This document shows positions 13,477-40,563 of a stretch of 64,000 bases of DNA, one piece after another; the first letter of the stretch is position 1, and every line of letters starts with the position of its first letter. Both the position numbers and the translations under genes were made by a program. The notes beneath the pieces were generated by a model. That model saw nothing but the letters and a program-made list of their open reading frames with translations. It did no database searches and was not told the DNA's origin. Origin of the DNA: Paenibacillus guangzhouensis (GTDB taxonomy: Bacteria > Bacillota > Bacilli > Paenibacillales > Paenibacillaceae); contig NZ_CP045293.1 in assembly GCF_009363075.1 (NCBI RefSeq), positions 3,224,001-3,288,000 on the forward strand, given 5' to 3'.

Positions 13477-14538
13477 TTAATCATTCCGATGGTAATCTGA
13501 AGACTGACGTGTAATGAGCTCATGCGGCATTAATAACTGAAAGGTAGGCCGGAAGTCGCTCTGCATGTAGTCGATCAATGTCTTGATCGCCGTTATGCCC
13601 AGCTCGAATTTCGGCACATGTATCGTTGATAATGGGGGTGAAGTATATTGCGACAATTCAATATTATCGATCCCGATAAACGCGATGTCCTCCGGAACAC
13701 GGAATCCCCGTTCAATGGCTGCTCGCATAGCCGGAAGCGCCAATCGATCGCTTGCTGCGAATATCGCCGTAGGCAGCTGCTTGCCTTGGTTCCGATCGAG
13801 CATCTCCAGCATCCAGCTGTAGCTCCGATCAACGACCCACTCCGTATTGATGAGCCATTCTTTTCGGATTTCTAGACCCGCTTTCTGCATCGATAACTTA
13901 TACCCGATATACCGATCTTCGCTCTCGAGTTCGCCGTCGTAACCATATCCACCAATATAGCCAATGTGCCGATGGCCTTGTTCAATCAAGTGATTGACGG
14001 CTGTCTCCGCAGCGGCAATGTGATCGAAATTGATATCTTGGATATTCGGGCTGTCAGACATTACACCTACGATTGCCGGGACATGCTTCTGAATCAAGCT
14101 GACCATGTCGTTATCCTCGTAAACATCCCCGAATATGACGACGCCGTCGACGCGCTGCTCATAGAGCACCTTTTGTAATGCAGCTTCATTCCGTAGCTCC
14201 TTGAACGTGTACATATAAGCGAACGTATAGCCGAAGTCCTCCAGCATCTTGCGCATGCCGGCAAAAATCGTTGTGAAGAACGGATCCTGCTCTGCGGAGT
14301 ATAGTGTCCAAGAAGAGATCAGCCCGATTTGCATGGTAGGCTGCTTCGATCCCGCATGTTTTTTCATCACCAGCTTGCGGGCAGATTCGTTGGGCTCATA
14401 ACCAAGCTCTTGAACTGCGCGCCATATCTTGCTCCTTGTCTCCTCACTAACATGTTTGGTTACATCGCTGTTGATGACGCGGGAGACCGTAGAGATCGAC
14501 ACGCCGACAGCTTCTGCAATATCTTTTAATGTTGTCAC
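13477..14538 (-). CDS. LacI-family transcriptional regulator
   Basis: A 353-residue repressor-type protein. Residues 2-50 (TLKDIAEAVGVSISTVSRVI) are the LacI helix-turn-helix and the rest is a type I periplasmic-binding-like effector domain with DGVVIFGDVYEDNDM, HRHIGYIGGYGYDGE and FIGIDNIELSQYTSPPLSTI. The start is a GTG at 14538 with ggag ten bases upstream. It is transcribed ahead of, and in the same direction as, the importer-M60 operon and probably controls it. Its own promoter carries a LacI/cre-like operator in the spacer. Confidence 0.92.
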   Translation of the reverse strand: MTTLKDIAEAVGVSISTVSRVINSDVTKHVSEETRSKIWRAVQELGYEPNESARKLVMKKHAGSKQPTMQIGLISSWTLYSAEQDPFFTTIFAGMRKMLEDFGYTFAYMYTFKELRNEAALQKVLYEQRVDGVVIFGDVYEDNDMVSLIQKHVPAIVGVMSDSPNIQDINFDHIAAAETAVNHLIEQGHRHIGYIGGYGYDGELESEDRYIGYKLSMQKAGLEIRKEWLINTEWVVDRSYSWMLEMLDRNQGKQLPTAIFAASDRLALPAMRAAIERGFRVPEDIAFIGIDNIELSQYTSPPLSTIHVPKFELGITAIKTLIDYMQSDFRPTFQLLMPHELITRQSSDYHRND

Positions 14539-14743: not shown

Positions 14744-14772
14744 ATTGTATTATGAATGCGTTTTCACGTCAA
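14744..14772 (-). promoter_or_regulatory. Promoter of the lacI-type gene with operator in the spacer
   Basis: On the minus strand TTGACG (14767-14772) and TACAAT (14744-14749) are exactly 17 bp apart, and the spacer holds TGAAAACGCATTCA (14753-14766), a palindromic cre/LacI-type site. The leader of about 200 nt also contains the dyad ATGTGC/GCACAT at 14632-14649. The promoter fires out of the edge of the palindromic array. Confidence 0.7.
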
Positions 14773-14794
14773 CTGATTTTGATCAAATATTAAA

Positions 14795-15833
14795 TAACTG
14801 CTAAAAAGCAGTTATTGAGCTCAAATTGGCTGCGGCGCGCTGAATTAACTGCAAAAAAGCAGTTATTCGGCTTGGATTGGCCGCGAGGCGCTGAATTAAC
14901 TGCAAAAAAGCAGTTATTGAGCTCGAATCGGCCGCGGGGCTACGAAATAACTGCAAAAAGGCAGTTATTTTGCTCGAATCGGCCGCGAGGCACCGAAATA
15001 ACTGCAAAAAAGCAGTTATTGAGCTCAAATTGGCTGCGTAGTGCTGAAATAACTGCAAAAAGGCAGTTCTTTTGCTCGGATCGGATGCGGGGCGCCGAAA
15101 TAACTGCAAAAAGCAGTTATTCAGCTCGCATTGGCCACATCGTGCTGAATTAACTGCAAAAAGGCAGTTCTTTTGCTCGAATCGGCCGCGGCGCGCTGAA
15201 TTAACTGCAAAAAAGCAGTTATTTTGCTCAAATCGGCTGCAGGGCGCTGAATTAACTGCAAAAAGGCAGTTATTTTGCTCGAATCGGCTGCGGCGCGCTG
15301 AATTAACTGCAAAAAAGCAGTTATTTAGCTCGGATCGGCTGTAGCACGCCAAAATAACTGCAAAAAAACAGTTATTCGGCTTGGATTGGCCGCGGCGCGC
15401 CGAAATAACTGCAAAAAGGCAGTTATTTTGCTAGAATCGGCCGCGGCGCGCTGAATTAACTGCAAAAAAGCAGTTATTTTGCTCAAATCGGCTGCAGGGC
15501 GCTGAATTAACTGCAAAAAGGCAGTTATTTTGCTCGAATCGGCTGCGGCGCGCTGAATTAACTGCAAAAAAGCAGTTATTTAGCTCGGATCGGCTGTAGC
15601 ACGCCAAAATAACTGCAAAAAAACAGTTATTCGGCTTGGATTGGCCGCGGCGCGCCGAAATAACTGCAAAAAGGCAGTTATTTTGCTCGGATCGGCTGTA
15701 GCACGCCGAAATAACTGCAAAAAGGCAGTTATTCGGCTCGGATCGGCTACGGCACGCCGAAATAACTGCACAAAAGCAGTTATTTGGCTCGCATCGGCCG
15801 CGGCGCGCTGAAATAACTGCAAAAAAACAGTTC
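14795..15833. repeat. Tandem array of 21 palindromic units, period about 51 bp
   Basis: Twenty-one copies of a unit follow one another without interruption. Each unit has a hairpin AACTGC-A(5-7)-GCAGTT followed by ATT, a variable GCTCGAATCGG-like stretch and a GC-rich CGCGGCGCGCTGAA stretch. Stems are conserved while the connecting bases vary, and AAAAA loops vary in length. Units start near 14795, 14847, 14898, 14949, 15000, 15050, 15101, 15151, 15203, 15254, 15304, 15355, 15407, 15457, 15508, 15558, 15609, 15661, 15711, 15762 and 15815. Open frames across it on both strands are repeat-encoded and not considered genes. It is not a CRISPR: there are no unique spacers. It fills the gap between the LacI gene and a truncated exported-protein gene. 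Confidence 0.95.
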
Positions 15834-15840
15834 AACACCG

Positions 15841-15866
15841 ACCACCTTCGCAGAGGCGAAGGTGGT
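15841..15866. repeat. Perfect 11-bp hairpin at the end of the palindromic array
   Basis: ACCACCTTCGC and GCGAAGGTGGT flank an AGAG tetraloop. It follows the last array unit directly. There is no T-run on either side, so its role as terminator is doubtful; it may cap the array or be a separate RNA structure. Confidence 0.6.
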
Positions 15867-15919: not shown

Positions 15920-16255
15920 TTACCTCGTAGCCAACAACAAAAATCCCGTCAAGCCGATCGCTGGACGGGATCCCAAAGTATCATCTGAATTATGAACCTG
16001 CAATGATTTTACCTGCGATCGCAGCCAATGCTCATCGCCATTGTAATTGCCTGTCACGCCGGTACTCGTTCCCCAGGGGCCGACGTATTGAAATTGATTC
16101 ACATCCGGTCCAACCTCCGTATCATTGATGATTATTGTCGTCTGCTCCCCTGCAGCAGCATTCGCTCGCGACAGGAGAAGCCCGTTCTGGACAAATGCTG
16201 TCAGCAGCATACATAAGATGAGCGTCCGTGCGACGATTGATTTCTTCATCAACAT
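15920..16255 (-). pseudogene. Truncated exported-protein gene fused to its own terminator
   Basis: ATG 16255 has aaaggagg nine bases upstream and opens a clear signal peptide (MKKSIVARTLILCMLLTAFV ending in ANA-AAG), followed by about 45 residues (TIIINDTEVGPDVNQFQYVG, then PWGTSTG, NYNGDEHW) that look like the start of a beta-sandwich carbohydrate-binding or glycoside-hydrolase protein. After about residue 80 the frame leaves this fold and reads straight through a terminator hairpin (15944-15970) before stopping at 15920. A large internal deletion joining the 5' end to the 3' untranslated region is the simplest explanation. The promoter is intact and cre-regulated. Which hydrolase it was cannot be told. 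Confidence 0.65.
15938..15971 (-). terminator. Terminator inside the 3' end of the truncated gene
   Basis: On the minus strand ATCCCGTC pairs with GACGGGAT followed by TTTTG. Its position inside the open frame is the main sign that the frame is a deletion product. Confidence 0.75.
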
Positions 16256-16365
16256 TCTCCATAAGCCTCCTTTGAACATCGATTAACCTTAGCCACGCTT
16301 CCAACGATGCTGAGAACCACTCGATCTATGATGTGATCAACCACCTCCTCTGACAAATGAAAAAG

Positions 16366-33797: not shown

Positions 33798-36700
33798 TTA
33801 CTGAATGTGCTTTTCCTTCTTCCTATTGGACAAACAGAACCCGATCACAATCAAGGACATCATCGCCAAAGCCATGTAGAAGATTGGCGATGTGCTATTA
33901 TCTCCTGTTTGCGGAACATCGTCCAGCTCGTTGTTACCGGTGCCGGTTCCATTGTTACCGTTGTCGGTTCCATTGTTACCGGTGCCGGTTCCATTGTTAC
34001 CGGTGCCGGTTCCATTGTTACCGTTGCCGCCACCGTTGTTACCGTTGCCGCCACCGTTGTTACCGTTGCCGCCACCGTTGTTACCGTTGCCGCCACCGTT
34101 GTTACCGTTGCCGCCACCGTTGTTACCGTTGCCGCCACCGTTGTTACCGTTGCCGCCACCGTTGTTACCGTTGCCGCCACCGTTGTTACCGTTGCCGCCA
34201 CCGTTGTTACCGTTGCCGCCACCGTTGTTACCGTTGCCGCCACCGTTGTTACCGTTGCCGCCACCGTTGTTACCGTTGCCGCCACCGTTGTTACCGTTGC
34301 CGCCACCGTTGTTACCGTTGCCGCCACCGTTGTTACCATTGCTGCCACCGTTGTTACCATTGCCGCCGGAACTGATCGGCGTCAGTTGTACATCGTAGCG
34401 CACAATGTCGCTTCCAACCGAGATTGTTGCGCTCGTATGCGTCACATACCCGGCTTTGGATACAACCAGATAGTAATCCGTATCCGGGAATACCATATAT
34501 GCATATGCTCCGGTTGCATCGCTGATCTGGCTTGGGCTGGCGTTATCGTTCGGAGCAAAGCCAGGAATCACAGGCAACGTTACTTTTGTGCCTGGAACGA
34601 TGCCGTTCGCTTTGTTCCTTGGTGTGTCCGCATAATACAGCGTCACTTCAGCGCCTTCAATGAATGCGCCGGTTTTTGCATCTGTAATTTTACCATACGG
34701 GTCAACCAGTTGCTCGGAGATATTGAGCTCCCCGCTTGCACTCACATTCAAGTCCGCATCCTTGATCACGGTCAATTCCTTGCCCAGTTCAAATTCATAG
34801 CGAAGCTCCAGCTTGTAGCTGCCTGTAGACAAGCCTTCTGCAACGAATGTGCCGTTAGATTGCAAGTCGAATGCTTTTGGAACTCCGTTCTGATCCAGAA
34901 TGTAGTCTCCAGTCGCATCCCGCAAATAAATATGCATTTTGCCTGCAAAAGCGCTGTTAAGCAGCGAAGATTTCCCATCAGGCTGCTTCAGAAGCACGAT
35001 ACCAACAGCCGTTATTTCCGCTGGAACTGGCTGGCCTCCTGTCACGCCGCTGTCGATCTCTGCTTTTTGCGTGAAGGTAACAGGCGTTGGCGTTCCGTTG
35101 ATATTGTATTGCTGCGTGTAGCTGACAGTATAGCTTCCACCTGGAGGAACAGGAAGGAAATACACGCCGTTCTCATCGGTCGTGATCGTATGTTCCTCTT
35201 TCGTGTCATCATTTTTCACCGTAACTGTCGCATTGGGAATGACTTTGCCCGTCGTGTTGTCCCTCAGCACACCGGTGATTGCCGCCGGCATAGCAGTTAC
35301 GGTCACAGGCGTTGCGATTGCTACGCCGTCTACCGTGCTGGTCGACTTTGCGCCGATCGTGTGTACTTCTGGTGTCGATCCAGTCAGCTTCTGCGGCGTA
35401 TAAGTGATAACTGCCTTGCCCTCTGCATTGGTCGTTGCCTTCACTTCCGTGTTGTCCGGGAGCGTGAAAACAATTTCTCTGTCCGCAACTGGCTTTCCTT
35501 CGTGGTCGATCAGCGTAGCCGTAATCTCCGAAGGCGTCTTGCCGTCACCAGGAACAATCGCAGGATTTGCTGTCAGTGTCAGCGTGCTGGACAAATAGCG
35601 CGTATTGATGAAGCGTGCCTCGGCAATCTTCTTCTCCTCGATCGTACCGGTATGCACGAAATTCTTAGGGTCAGTCGTGTAACCGTCCGACGTATAATCC
35701 GTCTGGGTGACGGTATAGGTCACGCCCTTGAGAATTTGGCTGGCATCAAAGATGGCAGTCTCTCCATGCTTGAGGGAGATCGTGCCGCCGGATTGGATCG
35801 TTCCCGTCCCACTCGTGCCATCGATTTTCGTATACGTATAAGTATACTCCTTGCTAGGATTTGCGCCATCGAACTTCACGGTGTACGTAAACAGCTTGTC
35901 CTTCTCTCCGCCGTTACCTGCCACCGTCTGCCCGATCAACAGACCGCCGTACACCATCCGCGTGTTGACGAATGATGCTATAGCGTCTTCGCCATCCGTG
36001 ATCGTCCCGGTAGACTTCCATTCCGGCAAGTTCACCGCATATCCGTCTGTTGTATAGTCATTCTCTGTCACGGTATAGACCGTATCCTTCGATATACCGG
36101 TAATGACGATGTTCTCTCCATGCCTCAGCATGAATGTTCCGCCAGATTGGATCGTACCTGTCTCATTCGTGCCGTCGATTTTCGTATACGTATAAGTATA
36201 CTTCTTGCTAGGATCTGCGCCATCGAACTTCACGGTGTACTTAAACAGCTTGTCCTTCTCTCCACCGTTGCCTGTCACCGTCTGACTAACCGTCAGTTGG
36301 CCGTCGAGATACTTGGCATTGATATAATGCGCTTCGACAGTGCTGTTCTTTACAATACTGCCTGTACGCGTCAAATTCGCCGGGTTCGTTGTATAGCCGT
36401 TACTTGTATAATCGTCCTGAACGATCGTGTAGGTGATGCCGTCAGGGATGCCCTTGAAGGTTACGACATTTCCGCCTTTCAGCGTAATCTTTCCGCCGCT
36501 CGTCACAGTGCCAAGCTTCTTGCCGGAAGCATCGTAATAGTCATAAGACTTGCCGTTGCTGAACGTAATCTTGTAGCTAAAGTCCTTAGTCTGGTCCGCA
36601 GCTTTCCCTTCAAGCTGCATATCCAGCTTCAAATCGCCAGTCTCCCACAGTGGGGTTGGCACAACCAGCAGATTATTCGAATCTACCTTTATGCCGTCTA

Positions 36701-39700
36701 CCCAGATGGGCTTTCCTGGCGTATTTCCTACATATACTTGATAAATTCTTGTCGTTGGTAGCCAAGTATTTGTGTCAATATAAGTTTCCTTCAGCTCATA
36801 ATACCCCGGATCCGGGAATAGCAGATTGAGCTTGCCATCATTTCCGGTTGTTCCTTGGGCAACTTGCGTTCCGCCCTCTTTCTTATACAGTGTAAACTGT
36901 ACGTCCTTTAGCGGGTTGCCATTGGGATCTACCTTTTTCAGGGGCAGCAAGGCATTGGAGCTTGAACTGCCGGCTACGTCCGAGCTGTCCAGCGTGCTTT
37001 CACTCTTGGCGCTGATAGATTTCAGCTTATCATCGCCCACCAGCTTGACCTCGTTGCCCATTTTGTCGCCAGCTTTCGCTTTGGTGTTGTCCACCTCGGT
37101 CTGGTATACAAACTGGTAGAACTTATTAGGGTCGTTCATTTTAAATTTTAGAACTGTCCTGCCGTTAGCACCCGGTTCAGCTTCTACCTGAACTTCAGCA
37201 TTCGGATCGCTTAGGTCGAGTGCTGCGCCCTCTTTTTCCAGAGCACCACTAGCAGTCAGTTTTGCACGATACACCGCCATACTAGGCGCTGTCAGCACCA
37301 GCTTGCCGTCAACATCATAGCGCAAGTTCATGTTAGCGCCTATCGTATCCTGCAAAAACACACCCTGCTCCATATTAAATGGAGGCGTATAGTTTACCGT
37401 CCATTCCAGCACGCCCGGCGTCGGCTTGCTCACCGACTTGCTCAATGTCTGAATCGGTACGATTACCTTACGCTGTTCAGTGACCGTCTTCTCCACCCCG
37501 CCCCATGTCATATGGAGGTCGGCTTTGTTATACATGACTTGCTTCGTCGTTCCACTTTTTGTGTATTCCTCTAAGTATTTCTCTAATGCTGCATTGGAAG
37601 GCCTTGCCTTTACCAGAATAACATAAGGGCTTTCCAACTTGGAGAAGCTGAATGTGCCCACGTTGCTGCTATGAGAGAAGCTTACCACATGAGCATTCGT
37701 ACCTGGTTCAATAAGTGTTCTGGCATCGTTTCTGACACCATACTCGGTACCTCCAGCATTGTCCGAATAGCCTTTCCAAAGCTCAAAATCCTTCCCCTCG
37801 GAAAACGGCACGAACTCCCAGCCCTCAGGCAGTGTGTCCACCAGCTTGATATTGCTGATTACTCGGTTCCCGCCGGCCTTAGCGAATGCATCTGTGTTGT
37901 ATCCTGGCATATTCAGACCTAGACGGAAAGTGACAGTCTTGGTCGTCCGGTCATAGGCAGAAATCGTCCATGCTTCATTGTTATCGTCTCTAATGTAGCT
38001 ACCAACGTTATTTGGGGTAACATTTTCAAGCGTACCATCTGCTTTCAAGGGCTTCGACGCAAAGAGCATATCCTTGTTCAGCATACGCAGGTGAAGATTT
38101 GTCCCATTTTCCGCCGCTTTTACGGTTTCGCCGTCAAACAGCAAAGCCCGATTCCATTTCCCTTTTCCTACGTTTATATCCTGCTTAAATAGGAAATCTG
38201 AATTGGTCTCAAGGGCACGGAAGCTGAAGGATGCAGCTTTGTCGGTGTATCCTGTCACTTTAATCAAATCCGCTACAACTTCACCGTTCACTGTCAAAGG
38301 AATAGCCTTCATGGTCAAGCCGTTTGCGCTCTTCAGCGTATCTTTATGATACTGCTTCCACAGTTGCGAAGTATTTACATTTGCTTTGATTTTCGCAATC
38401 GTTTCCTTGGTCACCTCGCCGGTTTCATCCACAGCGCTGTCCAAGACATTCAAATCTCCGCCATGCACCAACACATCATATACCGCCGCATTTGGCAGGG
38501 CATATTGTGGAGTTAGGTTGACTGTCCATGTAACACCGCCAAAATTGAAATCTTCCATCGAAATAGATCCACTTTTTGTAAAAGTGTGCGCGCCGATGGT
38601 AACAATTGCCTCGTCAGTTACTGCGGCAGGTCTTAAACCAGTTATTACATCGTTGTTCTGTATGCCATCCGGTGTATCTAACACCCAGTTGGCACGTGGA
38701 TCGATTCTGAAACTGGAGCCGTTTTTCACCTTACTCTTAATCACTAGCTCCACTTTACCGTCAATATCCCCAAAGGAATAAACACTGTTCGCATCCGGTG
38801 TAATGGATACTTCTCCAGATGCAATACCATCCACCCATGTCTGCCATGTGGCCGAGGTAAACTCCAGCCCTGTAGGCAGTACATTTGTGATGGTAAAGTT
38901 TTTTAACCCTTTTTTGTTATATTGGTTCACAACAACTGTCCATGTAATGGTTTGATTCAGATGGTCATACGAGGCGGACGCTTGAATCCAGTCTGGAGCA
39001 AAAGAAATCTCCTGACCTGCACTCACTAAAACAGTGTCATCGCTCTGTTTTAATTCCACTGTGCCTCTCATGTCCCGATAACTGCGACCAAGATTCCCCG
39101 GTGGGTTCTTGTGCTCGTAATAGTAAGCGTCCTTTGGAATCCATGTTTTATATTCGACCTTCGGATCTACACCTGTTCCCACTGGGAAAGTATAGGTTAG
39201 CGATCCGTCCCCACCGATGCTTGGGGTTGCCTCAATACCATTTACTTTGAATGAACCTGGCACATAGATACCGCGGACATTCCCTGGACTGGTATTATAA
39301 GAAGCAGGGTTCGTATAAAACGTCTTCCCGTCCAGCGACAGTTTAATAGTATTATCAAACTGATCGAAAGCAGATACGGTTGACTGCCAAGTAATCGCTC
39401 CCTCAACAAATTGTGCGGGTTGAAGTCCACGATAACTATACTGATCCCACTTGATCATTCCCGGCGAGGTCAATGTGATGCTGTATGCCGCTGTGACGTC
39501 CGGGTTTTTTAGCTGGTAAGCTCCCCCAAAGATGTTAATCGGCTTTGTCTCGCCATACGCCATTCCTGTTACATCGGCATCGGCAGTGGTTTCAAAGCTG
39601 AAGACAATACCACGTCCGACACCGTTGAAAAAGTAGTCATCACCGTTAAATACAATCCTAATGCTGTTCGGAGTGAAATAGGCGGTACCAAGCGGTTTCA

Positions 39701-40196
39701 TACCTGATTCAGTCTGTGCATTCAGGGTTTTAGTAGCTGTCGGGAGCACCACTTCCTTGAAGTAGTCTTCTCTCTTCAGCTCGATCCAGTCACCCTTCTG
39801 AATGTATTTTTCAGAATCTGCATTCGTCGGATTAGGATCATCGCCATTCACCGGCACCTTGAGACCTTCCGACTTAAGCGTAAATTGCTGTCTGCCCTGA
39901 ATAGTACCGTTTGGATCAATAGCAGCATTTCCCTGCGTCACATTCAACGGAAAGGTTGAATTAGCCTCCATAAACACCGCCGTTTTTTCCACGGGTACTG
40001 CCACTGCCATAACTAAATTATCCGGCACAGCATATACCGCCTCAGACACCGACGGGTCGCTCACAGTCTCCGTTCCGGGGTCGGTTAGCGCACTCTCCGC
40101 ATAGGCAGCAGCAGAGAACATCACGGTCTGTAAGGCAAGCAAAACAGCGAGACAAAAAGACAGCACCGCTTTGCTCATACTTCGTTTTCGTTTCAT
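33798..40196 (-). CDS. Giant multidomain cell-wall-anchored adhesin with VPQTG sorting signal
   Basis: A 2132-residue surface protein: signal peptide (to about residue 34, AAAYAES); an N-terminal region of about 1000 residues with repeated collagen-binding/isopeptide-type beta domains (ITWTVVVNQY near 423, VTWTVNLTPQ near 560, EWTVNYTPPF near 935); a Cna_B domain near 1085; three related domains of DUF7601/Cna_B-like type (about 1190-1540, each starting near a TVTGNGGEKDKLFKY-like stretch); an invasin-type Big_1 domain (TLTANPAIVPGDGKTPSEIT); carboxypeptidase-regulatory domains; a Gly/Asn stalk (about 1943-2088); and VPQTGDNS, a hydrophobic segment and a basic tail. ATG 40196 follows ggaggag; a GTG one codon earlier is possible. 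Probably a stalked, sortase-anchored adhesin for host or plant surface proteins or glycans. Confidence 0.92.
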   Translation of the reverse strand: MKRKRSMSKAVLSFCLAVLLALQTVMFSAAAYAESALTDPGTETVSDPSVSEAVYAVPDNLVMAVAVPVEKTAVFMEANSTFPLNVTQGNAAIDPNGTIQGRQQFTLKSEGLKVPVNGDDPNPTNADSEKYIQKGDWIELKREDYFKEVVLPTATKTLNAQTESGMKPLGTAYFTPNSIRIVFNGDDYFFNGVGRGIVFSFETTADADVTGMAYGETKPINIFGGAYQLKNPDVTAAYSITLTSPGMIKWDQYSYRGLQPAQFVEGAITWQSTVSAFDQFDNTIKLSLDGKTFYTNPASYNTSPGNVRGIYVPGSFKVNGIEATPSIGGDGSLTYTFPVGTGVDPKVEYKTWIPKDAYYYEHKNPPGNLGRSYRDMRGTVELKQSDDTVLVSAGQEISFAPDWIQASASYDHLNQTITWTVVVNQYNKKGLKNFTITNVLPTGLEFTSATWQTWVDGIASGEVSITPDANSVYSFGDIDGKVELVIKSKVKNGSSFRIDPRANWVLDTPDGIQNNDVITGLRPAAVTDEAIVTIGAHTFTKSGSISMEDFNFGGVTWTVNLTPQYALPNAAVYDVLVHGGDLNVLDSAVDETGEVTKETIAKIKANVNTSQLWKQYHKDTLKSANGLTMKAIPLTVNGEVVADLIKVTGYTDKAASFSFRALETNSDFLFKQDINVGKGKWNRALLFDGETVKAAENGTNLHLRMLNKDMLFASKPLKADGTLENVTPNNVGSYIRDDNNEAWTISAYDRTTKTVTFRLGLNMPGYNTDAFAKAGGNRVISNIKLVDTLPEGWEFVPFSEGKDFELWKGYSDNAGGTEYGVRNDARTLIEPGTNAHVVSFSHSSNVGTFSFSKLESPYVILVKARPSNAALEKYLEEYTKSGTTKQVMYNKADLHMTWGGVEKTVTEQRKVIVPIQTLSKSVSKPTPGVLEWTVNYTPPFNMEQGVFLQDTIGANMNLRYDVDGKLVLTAPSMAVYRAKLTASGALEKEGAALDLSDPNAEVQVEAEPGANGRTVLKFKMNDPNKFYQFVYQTEVDNTKAKAGDKMGNEVKLVGDDKLKSISAKSESTLDSSDVAGSSSSNALLPLKKVDPNGNPLKDVQFTLYKKEGGTQVAQGTTGNDGKLNLLFPDPGYYELKETYIDTNTWLPTTRIYQVYVGNTPGKPIWVDGIKVDSNNLLVVPTPLWETGDLKLDMQLEGKAADQTKDFSYKITFSNGKSYDYYDASGKKLGTVTSGGKITLKGGNVVTFKGIPDGITYTIVQDDYTSNGYTTNPANLTRTGSIVKNSTVEAHYINAKYLDGQLTVSQTVTGNGGEKDKLFKYTVKFDGADPSKKYTYTYTKIDGTNETGTIQSGGTFMLRHGENIVITGISKDTVYTVTENDYTTDGYAVNLPEWKSTGTITDGEDAIASFVNTRMVYGGLLIGQTVAGNGGEKDKLFTYTVKFDGANPSKEYTYTYTKIDGTSGTGTIQSGGTISLKHGETAIFDASQILKGVTYTVTQTDYTSDGYTTDPKNFVHTGTIEEKKIAEARFINTRYLSSTLTLTANPAIVPGDGKTPSEITATLIDHEGKPVADREIVFTLPDNTEVKATTNAEGKAVITYTPQKLTGSTPEVHTIGAKSTSTVDGVAIATPVTVTAMPAAITGVLRDNTTGKVIPNATVTVKNDDTKEEHTITTDENGVYFLPVPPGGSYTVSYTQQYNINGTPTPVTFTQKAEIDSGVTGGQPVPAEITAVGIVLLKQPDGKSSLLNSAFAGKMHIYLRDATGDYILDQNGVPKAFDLQSNGTFVAEGLSTGSYKLELRYEFELGKELTVIKDADLNVSASGELNISEQLVDPYGKITDAKTGAFIEGAEVTLYYADTPRNKANGIVPGTKVTLPVIPGFAPNDNASPSQISDATGAYAYMVFPDTDYYLVVSKAGYVTHTSATISVGSDIVRYDVQLTPISSGGNGNNGGSNGNNGGGNGNNGGGNGNNGGGNGNNGGGNGNNGGGNGNNGGGNGNNGGGNGNNGGGNGNNGGGNGNNGGGNGNNGGGNGNNGGGNGNNGGGNGNNGGGNGNNGGGNGNNGTGTGNNGTGTGNNGTDNGNNGTGTGNNELDDVPQTGDNSTSPIFYMALAMMSLIVIGFCLSNRKKEKHIQ
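33936..34371 (-). repeat. 18-bp coding minisatellite in the adhesin stalk
   Basis: About 17 nearly identical 18-bp copies (34018 to about 34323), each encoding six residues of the GGGNGN type, are flanked by diverged copies on both sides (TGTGNN and GGSNGN forms). The near identity at DNA level implies recent expansion; slipped-strand changes would alter stalk length in frame because 18 is divisible by three. Confidence 0.95.
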
Positions 40197-40199
40197 CAC

Positions 40200-40563
40200 A
40201 ACGTTCTCCTCCGTTTCTGAATTTTTTTGTCGTCAGCAAGATCACATGCCCAATTTAGCGCACGAACGTATAGACAGATGCTATATGTCTGAACCCAGCA
40301 GCCTTTCACATCATCAAGAACTTTCGAAAATGCAGATGACCTAGTGAGTACCACAGGTGTGCAGGCTGTTGATCATTGCTTAGTAATTCTCTCCCCCTCT
40401 CTTTCGATGATCTTTGCCAGTCAAATCCAGTAAACTGACAAAATACGTTATAATTAGACAACGTGCTTCGACATTGTATCACCCCGACCTAGACAAAAAC
40501 TAAACAGACACTCGACAATCATTTTGGATATATGAATCTCGTTGTTATAAATCGAAAAAACCC
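40200..40563 (-). other. 364-bp leader/intergenic region upstream of the adhesin
   Basis: No gene. A long-range stem (CAGCCT near 40299, AGGCTG near 40366) could form in the leader RNA. Possible -10 boxes (TACAAT near 40474, TATAAC near 40449) lack good -35 partners. No riboswitch consensus was recognised. Confidence 0.35.

What the first reader, a model, noticed from the sequence alone, without database searches (positions are those of the whole stretch)
14795..15833. Array of 21 tandem palindromic units of about 51 bp
Seen: each unit has a conserved AACTGC-An-GCAGTT hairpin, an ATT tail and a variable GC-rich connector; stems are kept while connectors drift, and loop length varies from 5 to 7 A. 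RNA from either strand would be a chain of 21 hairpins. The array lies between the LacI gene and a truncated gene and ends in a separate perfect hairpin. It does not fit CRISPR, tRNA arrays or known IS ends. It could be a multi-site DNA-binding platform, a transcription insulator, or a selfish repeat.
Basis: partly seen in the sequence, partly recalled or inferred. Interest (0 to 1): 0.72.

Follow-up and report, generated by a model that had tools for sequence, protein, structure and literature searches.

The report
Phased palindrome arrays in Paenibacillus genome
A stretch of 21 near-identical 51-base DNA palindromes is one of at least 35 such arrays in this bacterium's chromosome; it belongs to a known but unexplained class of fixed-length bacterial repeats, and its regular spacing suggests a landing platform for an unidentified DNA-binding protein.

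Summary
In detail: 14795-15832 is 21 palindromes (AACTGC-N6-GCAGTT), 19 of 20 steps exactly 51 bp. It is not unique: I found 35 such arrays (403 units) in this genome, a lower bound. In 30 of 35 the A-loop strand is the leading strand (p=2e-5), and none was found in a 2.15-Mb stretch that holds the terminus. A sister species has arrays at seven of the same sites, five with other copy numbers; connectors have drifted, the palindrome persists. Other genera of the family carry the palindrome as dispersed quartets spaced 51-62-51 bp with near-random connectors; 62-51 is about one helical turn. This is a member of the published, unexplained class of constant 51-53-nt Firmicute tandem repeats; 18 of 27 of its published consensus repeats also contain an inverted repeat. 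Best explanation: same-face binding sites for a dimeric protein, five or six helical turns apart. Spacing is shown; protein and function are inferred. RNA-hairpin, REP/RAYT-type and neutral readings fit less well but are not excluded. The window array itself has no counterpart at its site in the sister species.

The parts
14792..15833 (+). Array of 21 palindromic units AACTGC-N6-GCAGTT, period 51 bp. A-loop on the + strand, which is the lagging orientation on this arm: one of 5 exceptions among 35 arrays
   Evidence: TRF; unit finder; orientation
14795..14812 (+). First palindrome of the array (AACTGC TAAAAA GCAGTT)
   Evidence: sequence; flank listing
14744..14772 (-). Candidate lacI promoter (TTGACG-17-TACAAT), about 20 bp from the array edge
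   Evidence: consensus scan, (5 promoter-like sites found, 3.5 expected from shuffles, so weak)
13477..14538 (-). LacI-family regulator gene beside the array
   Evidence: Pfam PF00356 and PF13377
15841..15866 (.). Separate perfect hairpin (11-bp stem, AGAG loop) just past the array, with no T-run directly after it on either strand
   Evidence: read from the sequence
15935..15971 (-). Intrinsic terminator-like hairpin with T-run, between gene remnant and array
   Evidence: found by script; coordinates read off
15920..16279 (-). 119-aa ORF, probable gene remnant overlapping the terminator
   Evidence: ORF; no Pfam above cut-off; overlap

Best explanation
The array is one of at least 35 members of a genome-wide family of constant-length (51-52 bp) palindrome arrays lying between genes, and belongs to the known class of 52-nt Firmicute tandem repeats. 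Most likely each palindrome is a dyad-symmetric site (two AACTGC half-sites, 12 bp from one to the next) for a dimeric DNA-binding protein. Sites five (51-52 bp) or six (62 bp) helical turns apart face the same side of the helix, so bound dimers could assemble along the DNA as a filament, loop or bridging cluster. Shown here: the palindrome, the fixed half-site spacing, the two spacing classes in several genera, fast connector turnover with palindrome retention, the leading-strand orientation, the array-free stretch around the terminus. Inferred: that a protein binds, which one, that spacing serves cooperative binding, and that the role is in organising the origin-side chromosome.
For: Loop exactly 6 nt in 337 of 345 units although it is mostly an A-run. 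Centre spacings in this genome 50-52 bp in 367 of 368 adjacent pairs. In 30 loci of other genera that I chose, adjacent spacings are 50-52 (53), 61-63 (20), other (3: 57, 111, 114); the query selected for the first class but not the second, and 20 shuffles of the loci gave no pair. Connectors between those genera are 0.31 identical without gaps, against 0.25 shuffled and 0.41 within genus. In 7 orthologous array pairs connectors are 0.61 identical, within arrays 0.78, unrelated arrays 0.54-0.55, with palindrome and period kept. Orientation leading in 30 of 35 (p=2e-5); origin-side bias KS p=2e-4; largest array-free gap 343-2497 kb, 31% of the chromosome, chance ~1e-4, contains the GC-skew terminus at 1.82-1.90 Mb. 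The authors of the published class also propose a protein that polymerises on the DNA (PMC8161180).
Against: No protein was identified. In 115 palindromes from other genera several pairing positions covary beyond shuffles: innermost (A-T 91, C-G 9, G-C 1; 0 of 2000 shuffles) and five further ones (35, 3, 14, 1 and 16 of 2000); a hairpin predicts this as well as a symmetric site does, and the shuffles ignore relatedness. The asymmetric A- or T-rich loop and the orientation bias are not explained by a symmetric dimer alone. Most of the 50-52 class is selected by the query, and its cap (no period above 51 with a 6-nt loop) means elements with only longer spacings were not sought. Within one array constant spacing can come from tandem duplication itself. 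One orthologous pair has connectors no more alike than unrelated ones (0.49). G001, same genus, has no match in four patterns, so the system is dispensable. Three arrays (window, L030, L038) oppose both replication and both flanking genes.
Confidence: 0.5

Rival explanations
1. Non-autonomous selfish or mobile palindrome (REP- or MITE-like) that spreads in trans and then expands in tandem.
For: Dispersed quartets at many sites in G113, G027, G143, G012. Absent from G001. At the two sites compared with G002 the array is present in one species only. A leading-strand bias would fit an element acting on single-stranded lagging template (recalled for IS200/IS605-type elements).
Against: Y1/RAYT transposase (PF01797) not found in five palindrome carriers (G002, G113, G027, G071, G012); it is found in two carriers, G000 (one copy split in two frames) and G143 (four copies). 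No terminal repeat or target duplication seen by eye in 9 aligned G113 elements. 7 of 11 G002 arrays match a fetched G000 array site; the other 4 could not be tested. At the two sites that differ, the difference spans kilobases and not the array alone. Other transposases were not sought.
Confidence: 0.2
2. Functional RNA hairpins, or weak two-way terminators or insulators between transcription units.
For: Two window units folded as RNA on both strands: z -1.6 to -3.1; 7 of 21 window units score as terminator-like in a loose scan. Arrays follow a co-oriented gene in 26 of 34; other-genus elements lie between convergent ORFs in 14 of 27, or 11 of 24 without three where the neighbour is an inserted transposase gene (no genome background computed). 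Covariation in other genera. 52-nt repeats of B. coagulans are transcribed (PMC8625621, passages).
Against: No compensatory double change in 345 units; changes that leave a G-U pair are equal for the two strands (11 v 12, counted). A terminator-like hairpin with T-run lies within 166 bp in 9 of 33 on the 5' side and, converging, in 4 of 33 on the 3' side (13 different arrays; random genome windows 6 of 600, but these are not matched for lying next to gene ends), so at least some arrays lie beyond a transcript end; 20 of 33 show none of these. 51/62 quantisation has no evident RNA reason. No Rfam family reached its threshold. As single-stranded DNA one unit gives only z -1.5 and -0.8.
Confidence: 0.17
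3. Neutral minisatellite: slippage-driven tandem expansion of a hairpin-prone seed, without function.
For: Copy numbers differ at 5 of 7 orthologous sites (G002:G000 6:14, 3:15, 5:5, 7:15, 9:9, 13:15, 9:11); connectors homogenised within arrays; a hairpin on one strand could favour slippage and give an orientation bias.
Against: Palindrome kept while connectors turn over; same palindrome and spacing classes in several genera with near-random connectors; loop length nearly invariant despite A-runs.
Confidence: 0.1

Closest known systems
Constant 51-53-nt ('52-nt') non-coding tandem repeats of Firmicutes (Subirana & Messeguer 2021, PMC8161180, whole held text read; the 2020 J Bacteriol paper is not held)
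   Same: Fixed repeat length, sequence that differs between arrays, short conserved signals often with 'their reverse' in the same repeat, mostly 4-10 and up to 37 repeats, many arrays per genome, partial conservation between strains; the genus Paenibacillus is said to be particularly rich.
   Different: Here one palindrome is shared by all arrays found in the genome and by other genera. The fixed N6 half-site spacing, 51-62-51 quartets, leading-strand orientation and array-free terminus are not in the text I read.
REP/BIME and REPINs with RAYT transposases (recalled; PMC2817692, PMC3116915, PMC3686654, PMC3733652 seen only as search listings with the start of the abstract)
   Same: Short extragenic palindromes, hundreds per genome, often in clusters.
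   Different: No Y1/RAYT transposase in five of seven tested carriers, no GTAG/CGTC tag seen beside the stem in the units listed, strictly phased tandem arrays as the form seen here.
MIRU/VNTR loci of mycobacteria (recalled, no call)
   Same: Dispersed intergenic tandem arrays with variable copy number.
   Different: Here a palindromic core with fixed half-site spacing, found in several genera.
Noc, SlmA and RacA chromosome binding-site systems (recalled, no call)
   Same: Palindromic protein sites spread over the chromosome but sparse near the terminus or concentrated near the origin.
   Different: Those sites are not phased arrays as far as I recall; no protein is known here.

Membership tests
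52-nt Firmicute tandem repeats | Constant repeat length of 51-53 nt and at least 4 repeats | tested here: met
   Centre spacing 51 in 268 and 52 in 79 of 368 pairs; 33 of 35 arrays have 4 or more units, two have 2 and 3
52-nt Firmicute tandem repeats | Non-coding, many arrays per genome | tested here: met
   35 arrays between called ORFs; 51- and 52-bp steps mixed in many arrays break any frame. The window array alone has long frames because nearly all its steps are 51
52-nt Firmicute tandem repeats | Short conserved signals shared by the repeats of a species | tested here: met
   AACTGC/GCAGTT; every TRF row of period 49-54 in the 82 G000 stretches scanned carries ACTGC or GCAGT
52-nt Firmicute tandem repeats | Several families of different sequence in one genome | tested here: inconclusive
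   Connectors are array-specific (0.55 between arrays) but the palindrome is common; only about 1.4 of 6.95 Mb was scanned with TRF
52-nt Firmicute tandem repeats | Positions and lengths only partly conserved between related genomes | tested here: met
   7 of 11 G002 arrays match a fetched G000 site, copy numbers differ at 5 of 7; no counterpart of the window array at its site in G002
REP/REPIN with RAYT | Y1/RAYT transposase in the genome | tested here: not met
   PF01797 in 2 of 8 genomes (G000 split copy, G143 four copies); none in five other palindrome carriers
REP/REPIN with RAYT | GTAG or CGTC tag at the palindrome (recalled; title) | tested here: not met
   By eye in the eight arrays listed: stem flanks are GAAAT-type and ATT/AAT-type
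CRISPR | Unique spacers between repeats | tested here: not met
   Connectors 0.78 identical within the 14 arrays compared; cas genes were not searched
Intrinsic terminator arrays | G+C-rich stem followed by a T-run in each unit | tested here: inconclusive
   7 of 21 window units pass a loose scan
Protein-binding operator array | A specific protein binds the palindrome | not testable with these tools
   needs pull-down or genome-wide binding profile

The most novel reading that the evidence does not exclude
The whole enigmatic class of 52-nt Firmicute repeats is one system: arrays of dyad-symmetric protein sites set five or six helical turns apart, with fast-evolving site sequence but fixed geometry, oriented with replication and kept out of the terminus, forming a previously unknown chromosome-organising apparatus in Paenibacillaceae and Bacillaceae.
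Probability: 0.25. Interest if true: 0.85.

Novelty: new member of a known kind. Interest (0 to 1): 0.56.

Why it matters
Why some Firmicutes carry dozens of tandem repeats of constant ~52-nt length but variable sequence is an open, published question. The palindrome, the fixed 6-nt half-site spacing and the 51/62-bp classes give a concrete and cheap test: a bait DNA, a spacing-shift control, and a predicted leading-strand, terminus-free distribution to look for in other species. If a protein is found, it would explain a widespread repeat class and add a chromosome-scale DNA-binding system in a large group of spore-formers. If not, the same data set the rules for a hairpin-driven satellite.

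Tried and rejected
Rejected: CRISPR (connectors repeated within arrays); coding repeat (51/52 steps mixed); RAYT-driven REP as the general cause; known RNA families (one match, Hrs13, 21.4 bits against a gathering score of 52; none at E up to 0.1 in 15 loci). A dif-type terminus motif recalled from Bacillus found nothing with 3 mismatches, so origin and terminus were placed by GC skew.

Limits and controls against the reading: the strict pair pattern over the class hit only G000 among 329 genomes, 29 of them other members of the family, but it also missed G019 and G043, in which I read such elements (loci L082, L088), so it does not show absence outside the family. The looser family pattern hit 101 of 290 genomes, but the same pattern read backwards hits many too, so counts of 0-4 are no evidence by themselves; excess is clear for G000, G002, G113, G027 and G071, and g11, g12 and g18 rest on loci that I read. 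Arrays were found by exact patterns whose listings stop at about 100 places and from about 1.34 Mb of fetched stretches, so 35 is a lower bound; one array (L195) turned up only in a stretch placed without knowledge of it. Gene context rests on a simple ORF caller; L195 has none. 33 of 35 arrays entered the terminator test, and its control windows are not matched for gene ends; it also found terminator-like sites in the unexpected sense, 3 of 33 in the 5' flank and 1 of 33 in the 3' flank. 27 of 29 other-genus loci were classified for context; in L113, L115 and L116 the right neighbour is the transposase of an insertion. The stem substitution rate (47 of 4140) is biased low because the finder allows one change per arm. 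The 30 loci are my choice from the hits. One search used 100 shuffles per repeat, and some of the 27 published repeats are related to each other. G002 was compared only with fetched G000 stretches.

Full report
Observation. The window has one 51-bp array, 14792-15832 (TRF: 20.4 copies, 83% match). It consists of 21 palindromes AACTGC-N6-GCAGTT with 19 steps of 51 and one of 50; 20 of 21 loops are 6 nt. It lies between a LacI-family gene (13477-14538, -), whose candidate promoter ends about 20 bp from the array (weak), and a 119-aa ORF without Pfam family above cut-off whose 3' end overlaps an intrinsic terminator. A separate perfect hairpin follows at 15841-15866.

A genome-wide family. The unit pattern matches 107 + 149 times in the window's own genome, the backward control 0 times. 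A more general form, TAACTGC-N4..7-GCAGTTA, occurs 374 times. From pattern listings and fetched stretches I find 35 arrays of 2-22 units, 403 units in all, a lower bound. Every TRF row of period 49-54 in the 82 G000 stretches scanned carries the ACTGC or GCAGT signal. Centre spacings are 50-52 in 367 of 368 adjacent pairs, mostly 51 (268) and 52 (79). Loops are 6 nt in 337 of 345 units of the first 29 arrays.

Chromosome distribution. GC skew changes sign between 5.36 and 5.39 Mb (origin) and between 1.82 and 1.90 Mb (terminus). The A-loop strand is the leading strand in 30 of 35 arrays (p = 2e-5); the window array is one of the five exceptions. Among ten arrays between convergent genes, where gene direction gives no cue, nine are leading. 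34 of 35 lie in about the first 62% of their arm from the origin (KS p = 2e-4). The largest array-free gap, 343-2497 kb, has a chance of about 1e-4. TRF found no 49-54-period array in the 22 stretches of 20 kb that I placed inside that gap, and one (L195) in 27 such stretches outside it that were placed away from known arrays. Context relative to array direction: co-directional same 16, convergent 10, co-directional opposed 6, divergent 2, unknown 1. A terminator-like hairpin with T-run lies within 166 bp on the 5' side in 9 of 33 arrays and, converging, on the 3' side in 4 others, against 6 of 600 random windows that are not matched for gene ends; so some arrays, the window's among them, lie beyond a transcript end.

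Sister species. Of 12 G002 stretches fetched 11 hold an array, and 7 of these match a fetched G000 array site, with copy numbers (G002:G000) 6:14, 3:15, 5:5, 7:15, 9:9, 13:15 and 9:11; the other four had no fetched counterpart to compare. Connector identity is 0.78 within arrays, 0.61 between orthologous arrays (0.49 to 0.72 by pair) and 0.54-0.55 between unrelated ones: homogenisation within arrays while the palindrome is kept. The window array has no counterpart at its site: the lacI flank aligns at 83% up to base 14791, and G002 then has about 16.7 kb of other sequence before the next homologous stretch. At a second site (L017) G002 lacks the array together with about 2.9 kb around it.

Other genera. 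A tandem-pair pattern over 290 family genomes gave clear excess over the backward control in G113 (g6), G027 and G071 (g9). Reading loci from g6, g9, g11, g12 and g18 showed a symmetric quartet of palindromes with centre spacings 51-62-51; G071 has plain arrays of 2-6 units. In 30 chosen loci the adjacent spacings are 50-52 (53), 57 (1), 61-63 (20), 111 and 114 (1 each); 20 shuffles give none. The 61-63 class was not selected by the query. 62 minus 51 is 11 bp, about one helical turn, so all palindromes face one side of the duplex. The palindrome before the 61-63 gap has an A-rich loop in 16 of 20 (3 ties, 1 T-rich), the one after it a T-rich loop in 19 of 20. Connectors of 51-bp pairs are 0.31 identical between genera, 0.25 when shuffled, 0.41 within genus, compared without gaps. 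Elements lie between convergent ORFs in 14 of 27 classified loci, 11 of 24 without three with an inserted transposase; no background was computed. A strict pattern over 329 genomes of the class hit only G000, but missed two genomes with elements that I had read.

Hairpin or duplex site. In 345 units there is no compensatory double change; changes that leave a G-U pair number 11 for one strand and 12 for the other (counted), so there is no sign of selection on one RNA strand. Across genera the innermost position covaries (A-T 91, C-G 9, G-C 1 of 115, 0 of 2000 shuffles) and five further positions exceed most shuffles (1 to 35 of 2000); the shuffles ignore relatedness. That fits a hairpin as well as a symmetric site. 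Two window units fold somewhat better than shuffles as RNA (z -1.6 to -3.1), one unit little better as DNA (z -1.5 and -0.8). The invariant half-site distance and the quantised centre distance tip the balance to a duplex-DNA protein complex.

Known kind. [quoted passage not shown] B. coagulans repeats are transcribed (PMC8625621, passages). PMC6749651 was read in its first part of five. Of 27 consensus repeats in Table 1 of PMC8161180, 18 contain an inverted repeat at p <= 0.05 by 100 shuffles each (the 19 printed there includes the window unit). They note that signals and 'their reverse' often share a repeat. I did not find the palindrome geometry, the 51-62-51 quartet, the orientation or the terminus gap in print; my searches were made, and the 2020 J Bacteriol paper was not available.

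Verdict. A real feature, a new member of a known and unexplained kind, with structural regularities that make a protein-platform hypothesis testable. Mechanism and protein remain inference.

Noticed in passing
L113, L115, L116 (G113), inside a palindrome loop: In 3 of 9 G113 elements a palindrome (4th in L113, 3rd in L115 and L116) is broken in its loop by the same insertion, starting CAGACTGTTGAAAAATCGG; in L116 its 465-aa frame matches DUF772 and DDE transposase domains. An insertion sequence that seems to target these palindromes.
   Followed up: partly
window 33929-34367: A 21-bp x 20.9 tandem repeat lies inside a 2144-codon stop-to-stop frame on the - strand (33801-40232) as a 7-residue repeat, so it is probably a coding repeat.
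   Followed up: partly
window 14791 and L155: The array edge coincides with the end of homology to the sister species; about 16.7 kb of other sequence lies there in G002, so the array marks a rearrangement boundary.
   Followed up: partly
L125 (G143:C18): The quartet itself is repeated in tandem with spacings 51-52-51-62, a higher-order repeat.
   Followed up: no
L117, L119 (G071): Asymmetric relatives of the palindrome (AACGGCC...GCTGTTATT and AATAACTGC...GGCCGTTAG types) occur near the AACTGC arrays.
   Followed up: no
G107, G060 (genus g8), G081 (g9): 16, 6 and 9 palindromes of the TAACTGC...GCAGTTA form, not looked at further.
   Followed up: no
G000 C1:2220747-2221102: A Y1 (IS200-like) transposase match split over two frames.
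   Followed up: no
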